A stretch of DNA of 64,000 nucleotides from assembly GCA_035606695.1 (NCBI GenBank), contig DATNEW010000013.1, positions 62,001 to 126,000 on the forward strand, read 5' to 3'. This DNA is from Gemmatimonadaceae bacterium (lineage in GTDB: Bacteria; Gemmatimonadota; Gemmatimonadetes; Gemmatimonadales; Gemmatimonadaceae). The translations under genes and the position numbers were made by a program. The notes beneath the pieces are model-generated. The model was not told where the DNA came from and made no database searches. It was given only the letters and a program-made list of their open reading frames with translations. Positions 13,234-25,834 of the stretch are shown piece by piece (position 1 is the stretch's first letter; every line of letters starts with the position of its first letter).

Positions 13234-13311
13234 CTCGGCGGAGTGTCGCGCGGAATGCAAACTCCCCGGCGGGAGGGCGGTGGTGGGACAGCGAACGGAT
13301 ATGTTCGCCCT

Positions 13312-13469
13312 TAAAGCAAAAAACAGTTATTTTTCGGCGAGTAAAGTAAAAAATAACTTGCTTTTGTGCGATTTAAAGCAAAATATTATATGCTTTTTTC
13401 GTACTTAAAGCAAATGGTCAATTGCTTAAATTCTATGTAAAGCAAGTGTTTCTTTGCTCAAAATCTGCT
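13312..13469. repeat. AT-rich array of five palindromic ~32-bp units (operator/iteron-like)
   Basis: Five units start with TAAAG(C/T)AA at 13312, 13342, 13374, 13406 and 13438, spaced 30, 32, 32 and 32 bases. Four units also carry the inverted half (TTGCTTTT 13359, ATGCTTTT 13390, TTGCTTAA 13423, TTTGCTCA 13453), giving imperfect palindromes with 7-9 base centres that differ between units. The block is strikingly AT-rich in a GC-rich window. It lies 37 bases upstream of the HTH gene, so it is most simply a multi-site operator, although an iteron or recombination-site role cannot be excluded. Confidence 0.85.
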
Positions 13470-13506
13470 GAGAAGGACACGAAAAACAGGTCTCCGCCAT
13501 CCCAAT

Positions 13507-14022
13507 ATGGGTACTCGAGCAATGTCACGGAAGCCAAAGCGCGGTCGCCCAAGCCAGCCGCCGGTTGAGTTCGCAACGTTGCAGCTTCGACAGCTCGACC
13601 GGCATTTCAGCGAACTGAGTCGCTTGGCGTTGAGAGCCCTTGCCGCCCCTCCTGGGGGGTGGATCAAGGCAATTCGAACCGCACTAGGGATGAGCCAGGA
13701 GCAGCTCGCGCGCCGACTCGACGTGACGCGCCAGAGCGTTGCCTCACTCGAGCGCGGCGAAAGCAGCGGCAAAGTGACGTTACGCGCCCTGCGAAACGCA
13801 GCCGAGGCTCTCAATTGCGAACTCGTTGTCGCACTGGTACCGAGGCAGCCGCTCGAACACGCCGTCAATGATCGGGCTCGTGCGAAGGCCCTGGCTGAGA
13901 GAGACAGGCTCATCCACACGATGCGACTCGAGGCGCAGGACGAATCCGTCGGAGACGCGTTAAGCCTCGACGCGGATACTGCGAAATGGCTGACCGAGCG
14001 CCGCTCAGAGCTTTGGGATTAG
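13507..14022 (+). CDS. HTH regulator, mobile mystery protein A-like
   Basis: The 171-residue protein (alternative ATG at 13522) has a basic N-terminus, then LRQLDRHFSELSRLALRALAAPPGGWIKAIRTALGMSQEQLARRLDVTRQSVASLERGE, a clear XRE-type helix-turn-helix at about residues 54-85. The layout and the Fic partner six bases downstream match the TIGR 'mobile mystery protein A' family, which is always paired with protein B. By analogy it is the DNA-binding, probably autoregulatory and antitoxin-like half. The palindromic array just upstream is its likely binding site (inference). No strong ribosome site is seen. Confidence 0.85.
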   Translation: MGTRAMSRKPKRGRPSQPPVEFATLQLRQLDRHFSELSRLALRALAAPPGGWIKAIRTALGMSQEQLARRLDVTRQSVASLERGESSGKVTLRALRNAAEALNCELVVALVPRQPLEHAVNDRARAKALAERDRLIHTMRLEAQDESVGDALSLDADTAKWLTERRSELWD

Positions 14023-14028
14023 GCCGGA

Positions 14029-14628
14029 TTGACTGAGCCTGCAGACGAAGTCGTCGAGGGAGCCACTCCGCTTGATGAAGATGAGCAAGAAGGGCTGCGA
14101 GTCGCTGCCAAGACACGCGGGGACTTGAACCAGCTCGAGGCTGTGAACATTCAAGCTGCCACGGAGTGGGCCGCAAAAAAGCGAAATTTCGATCCCTTCT
14201 CCGTGAACGACCTGCGTGACCTGCACCGCCGCATGTTCGGATCCGTTTGGGACTGGGCAGGGACGTTCCGACAAACGATGAAGAACCCGTCTCCTTTACC
14301 TGCCCACGCGGTTCAGAACGCGATGCACGACTTTGCGGCGAACTTCAAGGCTCAGTATGAGTCTGCCAATCGGTCGCCTGAAGACTTGGATCGTATCGCG
14401 GCGCGCTATCACCACGAGCTGGTTCGAATTCACCCGTGGCCCAACGGAAACGGTCGCCACGCAAGACTTGCGACGGACCTGCTGCTGCGACGAATGGGGC
14501 GTCCGCCATTTACGTGGGGAAATAGCGATCTCCTTAAAGTCACCGCCGCTCGATCGGCCTATCTCGCTGCGCTCCGCGCGGCGGATGGATACGACCTGAC
14601 GCTGCTTTATGATTTTGTGCGCTCCTAA
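14029..14628 (+). CDS. Fic-domain protein, mobile mystery protein B-like
   Basis: The 199-residue protein starts at TTG 14029 (AGG five bases before), right after the HTH gene stop. The N-terminus TPLDEDEQEGLRVAAKTRGDLNQLE is typical of mobile mystery protein B. The Fic core HPWPNGNGRHAR at about residue 137 has all active-site residues of HxFx(D/N)GNGRxxR, with Trp for Phe. Fic enzymes transfer AMP or other phosphate groups to hydroxyl side chains. Target and toxicity are unknown. No classic (S/T)xxxE(G/N) inhibitory helix was seen here or in the partner, so control may be transcriptional. Confidence 0.9.
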   Translation: MTEPADEVVEGATPLDEDEQEGLRVAAKTRGDLNQLEAVNIQAATEWAAKKRNFDPFSVNDLRDLHRRMFGSVWDWAGTFRQTMKNPSPLPAHAVQNAMHDFAANFKAQYESANRSPEDLDRIAARYHHELVRIHPWPNGNGRHARLATDLLLRRMGRPPFTWGNSDLLKVTAARSAYLAALRAADGYDLTLLYDFVRS

Positions 14629-14750: not shown

Positions 14751-14823
14751 CTCCCCGAGTAGGACTCGAACCTACGACCACTCGATTAACAGTCGAGCGC
14801 TCTACCAACTGAGCTATCGGGGA
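14751..14823 (-). tRNA. tRNA-Asn: tRNA-Asn (GTT)
   Basis: Read on the minus strand, the 73-base gene begins TCCCCGATAGCTCAGTTGG. It has a D-arm with GGTAGAGC, an anticodon loop CTGTTAA (anticodon GTT), a T-arm GGTTCGAGTCC, a 7-bp acceptor stem closed by TCGGGGA, and discriminator G73, as in other tRNA-Asn. CCA is not encoded. Its 3' end faces the HTH/Fic cassette. Confidence 0.97.
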
Positions 14824-25632: not shown

Positions 25633-25812
25633 AACGGCGCCAGCCCGAACGGCGCCAGCCCGAACGGCGCCAGCCCGAAGATCGCCAGCCCGAGCTACGC
25701 AAATTCGAACGCCGCAGCGTCGCTCGAATTTGCGTAGTTCGGGTTGGCGCTTTATGGGTTGGCGCTTCATGGGTTGGCGCTTCATGAGCTGGCGCTTTAT
25801 GGGCTGGCGCCG
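25633..25812. repeat. Mirror-image tandem array, 15-bp period (giant hairpin)
   Basis: Six 15-bp units run 25633-25722, the first three identical (AACGGCGCCAGCCCG) and the last three divergent. They are followed at once by six inverted units 25723-25812 (for example TATGGGTTGGCGCTT). The innermost pair, CTACGCAAATTCG and CGAATTTGCGTAG, matches perfectly. The flanks AGAGCGAGGG and CGTTCGCTCT continue the mirror, so the hairpin spans nearly the whole 213 bases between two convergent stop codons. Confidence 0.92.
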
Positions 25813-25834
25813 TTCGGTTTCGCGCCCGTTCGCT

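What the first reader, a model, noticed from the sequence alone, without database searches (positions are those of the whole stretch)
13312..13469. Five palindromic AT-rich units with an almost exact 32-bp period upstream of an HTH/Fic pair
Unit starts (TAAAGCAA-type) are spaced 30, 32, 32 and 32 bp, about three helical turns. Four units end in the inverted half TTGCTTTT or a close variant, while the centres differ. This is more regular than a normal antitoxin operator, and the AT content contrasts with everything around it. The simplest reading is a co-operative binding array for the adjacent HTH protein on one face of the DNA. An iteron/origin or recombination-site role is the alternative.
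Basis: partly seen in the sequence, partly recalled or inferred. Interest (0 to 1): 0.75.

Follow-up and report, generated by a model that had tools for sequence, protein, structure and literature searches.

The report
Phased operator array of Fic toxin-antitoxin pair
Upstream of a gene pair long called "mobile mystery A/B" lie five evenly spaced mirror-image DNA sites; comparable rows of sites spaced 32-33 bases apart precede most of the relatives examined, with letters that change along with the DNA-reading part of protein A, so they are very probably the landing strip through which A controls its own toxin-antitoxin operon.

Summary
The array is real: five 22-bp units (centres 30, 32, 32, 32 bp apart, form AAGCAA-N8-TTGCTT, unit 1 a weak half) at 13313-13460, GC 0.34 in DNA of 0.58-0.69. 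It is not chance (z about 20 against shuffles), and strong matches occur nowhere else in the 5.9-Mb genome except one isolated hit. The adjacent genes are mobile mystery A (TIGR02612, Xre HTH) and B (TIGR02613, Fic). Thirty unrelated Xre promoters show no such peak. Twelve plasmid loci fetched afterwards gave 30/32 steps of 32-33. Half-sites differ between lineages and covary with A's recognition helix beyond overall divergence (p=0.0005). A also carries a near-invariant [ST]MxLExQ motif at a helix end, fitting the Fic inhibition motif [ST]xxxE. Best reading: a class-I-like Fic toxin-antitoxin operon whose HTH antitoxin binds its own phased multi-operator array. Cooperativity, bridging by B and toxicity are inferred. 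The library searched holds no description of the array.

The parts
13313..13334 (.). array unit 1 (left half AAAGCAA good, right half degenerate)
13343..13364 (.). array unit 2 AAAGTAA-N8-TTGCTTT
13375..13396 (.). array unit 3 AAAGCAA...ATGCTTT
13407..13428 (.). array unit 4, perfect AAGCAA-N8-TTGCTT
13439..13460 (.). array unit 5 AAAGCAA...TTGCTC; centre 72 bp upstream of the ATG at 13522 (57 bp upstream of the ATG at 13507)
13507..14022 (+). mobile mystery A (TIGR02612): Xre HTH protein, predicted antitoxin/autorepressor; alternative in-frame ATG at 13522
13918..13938 (+). TMRLEAQ in A (residues 138-144), fits Fic inhibition motif [ST]xxxE at the end of helix 116-141
   Evidence: motif definition PMC5033356
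14029..14628 (+). mobile mystery B (TIGR02613): Fic-fold protein, predicted toxin; TTG start 6 nt after the stop of A
14431..14466 (+). Fic loop HPWPNGNGRHAR of B (Asn where the consensus has Asp/Glu; R2 kept)

Best explanation
The array is the multi-operator promoter region of a two-gene Fic toxin-antitoxin operon. Protein A, an Xre-type helix-turn-helix dimer, binds each 22-bp palindrome with one half-site per monomer; three to five dimers sit side by side at a fixed 32-33 bp step (about three helical turns) and repress transcription of A and B, probably co-operatively. The C-terminal helix of A, ending in [ST]MxLExQ, probably plugs the Fic active site of B by pairing its Glu with the second Arg of the Fic loop, as class I Fic antitoxins do. 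The fixed step most likely reflects contacts between neighbouring A dimers, directly or bridged by B as Doc bridges Phd. Shown by computation: array, conserved step, specificity covariation, conserved motifs. Inferred: binding, repression, co-operativity, bridging, inhibition, toxicity.
For: Array in own locus far above shuffles and unique in the genome. Lag spectrum of 61 non-redundant A homologues: 39 have a repeat at 33 bp (shuffles 4.7, z=16), 21 at 32 (z=7.6), echoes at 66 (z=11), 65 and 64, and no other comparable peak. Free-step chains: 40 arrays, 94/103 steps of 32 or 33 vs 7.7% in shuffled sequence. Thirty unrelated Xre upstreams: no peak. Later-fetched plasmid loci: 8/12 above every shuffle, 30/32 steps of 32-33. 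Half-site distance vs six recognition-helix residues, controlling for the rest of the protein: partial r=0.357, p=0.0005; none of 300 random column sets reaches it. Motif in A: S/T plus E/D in 58 of 68 proteins, E/D in 65 of 68; R2 of the Fic loop in 53/53 B proteins. Fold of A nearest HipB, HigA2 and C-proteins (weak hits); B is Fic. Xre-Fic pairing was listed as a TA association in PMC2701414.
Against: No binding or expression data. No sigma-70-like promoter found at the array, so what is repressed cannot be placed. About a third of homologues (21/61) have no significant array. Own units lack the TATA core that most family units have, and the first step is 30. The fused A-B model (pTM 0.55, coordinates not available) does not show whether the motif of A docks in B. 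B has Asn in place of the acidic Fic residue in 50/53, so ordinary AMPylation is doubtful.
Confidence: 0.87

Rival explanations
1. The array is a centromere- or stability-like site: A coats it, and the nucleoprotein array helps the carrying element to persist (partition or pairing), with B as addiction component.
For: Regular multi-site arrays beside an HTH gene resemble partition sites that double as operators (own knowledge); A relatives are common on plasmids (230 records) and the pair lies on a genomic island in PMC4886054.
Against: No partition NTPase recognised beside the pair in the own locus (ORFs read by eye) or annotated in the plasmid loci inspected; arrays also precede copies in assembled genomes of three phyla; no second array in the genome.
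Confidence: 0.06
2. The array is an iteron origin or a recombination/transposition end of a mobile element.
For: Regular direct spacing; the pair lies next to a tRNA-Asn whose 3' end borders variable DNA.
Against: No replication initiator or recombinase recognised among the ORFs beside it (by eye); only one array and no partner end; no direct repeats >=9 bp flanking the pair; half-sites covary with A.
Confidence: 0.03
3. AT-rich low-complexity DNA that looks periodic by chance or by compositional bias.
For: The region is AT-rich in GC-rich DNA.
Against: Dinucleotide-preserving shuffles of each half do not give it; same step in unrelated half-site sequences.
Confidence: 0.01

Closest known systems
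hipBA (HipB multi-operator promoter; PDB 4yg1, 5k98)
   Same: Xre antitoxin gene before toxin gene; several palindromic operators in one promoter; HipB is among the nearest folds to A; half-site-N8-half-site geometry resembles HipB TATCC-N8-GGATA (own knowledge)
   Different: Toxin is a kinase, not Fic; no fixed 32-33 bp step across diverging half-sites is described in what I read; A has an extra C-terminal helix with a Fic-type motif
Phd-Doc (P1)
   Same: Fic-fold toxin with DNA-binding antitoxin; two adjacent palindromes engaged co-operatively because Doc offers two antitoxin-binding faces (PMC13034048)
   Different: Phd is not an Xre HTH protein; two sites instead of three to five; bridging by B is not tested here
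Class I FicTA (VbhTA, EcFicTA)
   Same: Inhibition motif [ST]xxxE[GN] at the end of an antitoxin helix facing R2 of the Fic loop (PMC5033356); antitoxin gene first; B matches the VbhT fold with TMt 0.77
   Different: A has a full HTH domain and an operator array; last motif position is not G/N; Fic loop has Asn instead of Asp/Glu
AbiE / Rv2827c antitoxins
   Same: Antitoxin autoregulates through several repeats in its promoter; four repeats in Rv2827c (PMC7319586)
   Different: Repeats of 23 bp with 13- and 4-bp gaps, type IV system with nucleotidyltransferase-like toxin

Membership tests
mobile mystery A (TIGR02612) | score above curated cut-off | tested here: met
   138.3 bits vs cut-off 122.6
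mobile mystery B (TIGR02613) | score above curated cut-off, directly downstream of A | tested here: met
   176.4 bits vs 124.4; B starts 6 nt after the stop of A
class I Fic toxin-antitoxin | inhibition motif [ST]xxxE[GN] supplied by the antitoxin | tested here: inconclusive
   [ST]xxxE met (TMRLE), position after E is A, not G/N; docking not testable with the model returned
class I Fic toxin-antitoxin | Fic loop HPFx[DE]GN[GK]RxxR | tested here: not met
   HPWPNGNGRHAR: Asn at the acidic position, as in 50/53 homologues; R2 met
type II toxin-antitoxin operon | toxic B neutralised by A through protein contact | not testable with these tools
   needs expression experiments
type II toxin-antitoxin operon | DNA-binding antitoxin autoregulates through operators in its own promoter | tested here: inconclusive
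   operators and specificity covariation found; binding and repression not measured
iteron origin | replication initiator gene beside the repeats | tested here: not met
   ORFs around 9-19 kb include an antiporter-like protein, A, B and a UvrA-like protein; no initiator recognised by eye; families of A and B

The most novel reading that the evidence does not exclude
A (with B as bridge) polymerises on the array into a continuous, geometrically fixed nucleoprotein filament of 33 bp per repeat that stores inactive Fic protein on DNA and releases it in one step when the filament breaks, a switch whose geometry is conserved while its sequence code drifts with the recognition helix.
Probability: 0.12. 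Interest if true: 0.8.

Novelty: new variant of a known kind. Interest (0 to 1): 0.62.

Why it matters
A pair of widespread genes has carried the label 'mystery' with hardly any study (four papers in the library mention the name; the two I read do so in passing). The array, the conserved step, the specificity code and the Fic inhibition motif together give it a testable function. The natural variation (40 arrays, paired recognition helices and half-sites) is a ready data set for decoding Xre-type DNA recognition and for asking why operator phasing is kept while operator sequence drifts.

Tried and rejected
Searching relatives for the own half-site sequence: almost none has it; the conserved thing is the spacing, not the letters. 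Loci on the minus strand are returned unturned and first looked as if B lay upstream of A; re-orientation corrected this. A sigma-70 scan gave nothing at the array. Rfam found only the tRNA. Test 'array depends on B': L057 and L063 lack B and array, but L076 lacks B and keeps the array, and too few true orphans exist. Fused A-B fold by reading the TAG as Gln: confident domains (pLDDT 89.9), but overall pTM 0.55 and no coordinates, so docking is undecided. Synteny: antiporter neighbours too diverged to define the empty site; the uvrA side gave the tRNA border only.

Full report
WHAT IS THERE. Five AT-rich 22-bp units start at 13313, 13343, 13375, 13407 and 13439. Units 2 to 5 follow AAGCAA-N8-TTGCTT with at most one mismatch of twelve; unit 1 has only a good left half. 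The stretch 13300-13499 has GC 0.335 in a neighbourhood of 0.58-0.69. The array scores 35.5 against a shuffle maximum of 10.1 (z=19.7). In the genome of 5.9 Mb, sites with at most one mismatch occur at five places, four of them in the array; at two mismatches there is no excess over the reversed-pattern control (49 vs 157). So any regulation through this motif is local.

THE GENES. The ORF at 13507-14022 is mobile mystery A (TIGR02612, 138.3 bits, cut-off 122.6), an Xre HTH protein; the ORF at 14029-14628 is mobile mystery B (TIGR02613, 176.4 bits, cut-off 124.4), a Fic protein. Foldseek places B with Fic structures (VbhT TMt 0.77) and A weakly nearest HipB, HigA2 and restriction-modification C-proteins.

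THE FAMILY RULE. A homologues were drawn from three phyla: the phylum of the window (29 of 298 genomes over cut-off), the phylum of a record titled Proteobacteria (16 of 399) and that of a record titled Sphingobacteriia (26 of 248). After removal of near-identical upstreams 61 loci remained. Counting 8-mers repeated (7 of 8) at each lag in the 200 bp before A, 39 loci have a repeat at lag 33 (shuffles 4.7, z=16) and 21 at 32 (z=7.6), with echoes at 64-66; no other lag from 12 to 80 comes near. A second method, chaining palindromes with the step left free between 20 and 45 bp, gave 40 arrays of two to six units with 103 steps: 69 of 33, 25 of 32, 4 of 30, 3 of 34, 2 of 29 (arrays kept at z of 3.5 or more with neighbouring steps of 29-35). 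In shuffled sequence 7.7% of free steps are 32 or 33. The step is the same in all three phyla.

CONTROLS. Upstreams of 30 other Xre genes (TIGR03070 search) show no peak at 32, 33 or 66 (2, 3 and 0 of 30). After the rule had been stated, twelve plasmid-borne homologues were fetched: eight exceed every shuffle and 30 of their 32 free steps are 32 or 33. Limits: loci are related by descent, start codons were chosen by rule, and the chain method picks the best chain, which is why shuffles went through the same procedure.

SPECIFICITY. Averaged over the family a unit has a TATA core (T and A about 80% at -2 and -1) and palindromic but variable outer positions 5-10 bp from the centre. Half-sites differ: TATAG types (L003-L006), CGTATG (L014, L015, L020), GTCAA (L046, L049 and others), AAAGCAA here. 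Half-site distance between loci correlates with distance in six residues around the start of A's recognition helix when overall divergence of A is controlled for (partial r=0.357, permutation p=0.0005), and none of 300 random six-column sets does as well. The own protein (TRQS) and L010 (SRQS) share GCA at the same offset. This is the strongest evidence that A itself reads the array. A partial Mantel test does not remove all effects of descent.

LINK TO FIC CONTROL. Aligned A proteins share a near-invariant [ST]MxLExQ (Met139 invariant; Leu141, Glu142 and Gln144 at least 90%); AlphaFold2 puts it at the end of helix 116-141. Class I Fic antitoxins carry [ST]xxxE[GN], the Glu pairing with R2 of the Fic loop, and in EcFicA it lies at the C-terminal end of a helix (PMC5033356). 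R2 is kept in 53 of 53 B proteins. The two B proteins with HPFE[LR]GNGR are paired with A proteins that read SMKLDAH (Glu to Asp, Gln to His), as if the two sites change together, on only two pairs. B has Asn in place of the acidic residue of the Fic loop in 50 of 53, so its chemistry may not be plain AMPylation. The fused A-B model cannot decide docking.

MECHANISM. Best reading: A dimers occupy successive palindromes three helical turns apart and repress the A-B operon, and A plugs B. Operators in a row suggest co-operation; the conserved step suggests a contact of fixed geometry, either A to A or through B, as Doc does for Phd on two adjacent palindromes (PMC13034048). These last steps are inference. 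At 10.5 bp per turn a 32-bp step is nearly in phase; a 33-bp step advances about 51 degrees per unit unless the DNA is unwound to 11 bp per turn.

KNOWN OR NEW. Multi-operator autoregulation is known for HipBA (own knowledge; PDB entries), Phd-Doc and AbiE-like systems. Xre next to Fic/Doc was listed as a TA association in 2009 (PMC2701414). The library holds four papers naming mobile mystery proteins; the two I read mention them in passing, and a search for a 33-bp Xre operator array found nothing. Most subscription papers are not held, so novelty is provisional. I file it as a new variant of a known kind.

Noticed in passing
L061, L064 (genome-search hits G341, G519): An A-type HTH stretch lies in one ORF with further sequence; in L061 this shows a GSAARGKLKDESDINLL nucleotidyltransferase-like signature. 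No array upstream.
   Followed up: partly
window 14751-14823: tRNA-Asn next to uvrA is kept in relatives, and similarity ends about at the tRNA 3' end, so the A/B pair and the antiporter lie in variable DNA beside a likely insertion hot spot.
   Followed up: partly
L009, L013, L016: Sub-branch with SMKLDAH in A and HPFE[LR]GNGR in B (B read for L009 and L016) has no regular array; L009 and L013 seem to have two sites about 34 bp apart by eye.
   Followed up: partly
window 14431-14466 and homologues: Fic loop with Asn instead of Asp/Glu in 50 of 53 B proteins: possible different chemistry or inactive enzyme.
   Followed up: partly
plasmid records of Agrobacterium, Rhizobium, Sinorhizobium, Vibrio: 230 plasmid records encode an A relative, 101 of them Agrobacterium.
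   Followed up: no
window 14029-14628: B matches PADLOC candidate defence family PDC-S04 (E 1e-27), so a phage-defence role is possible.
   Followed up: no
window 25737-25833: ARAGORN reports a 97-base tRNA-Ala with the anticodon at position 40, longer than usual.
   Followed up: no
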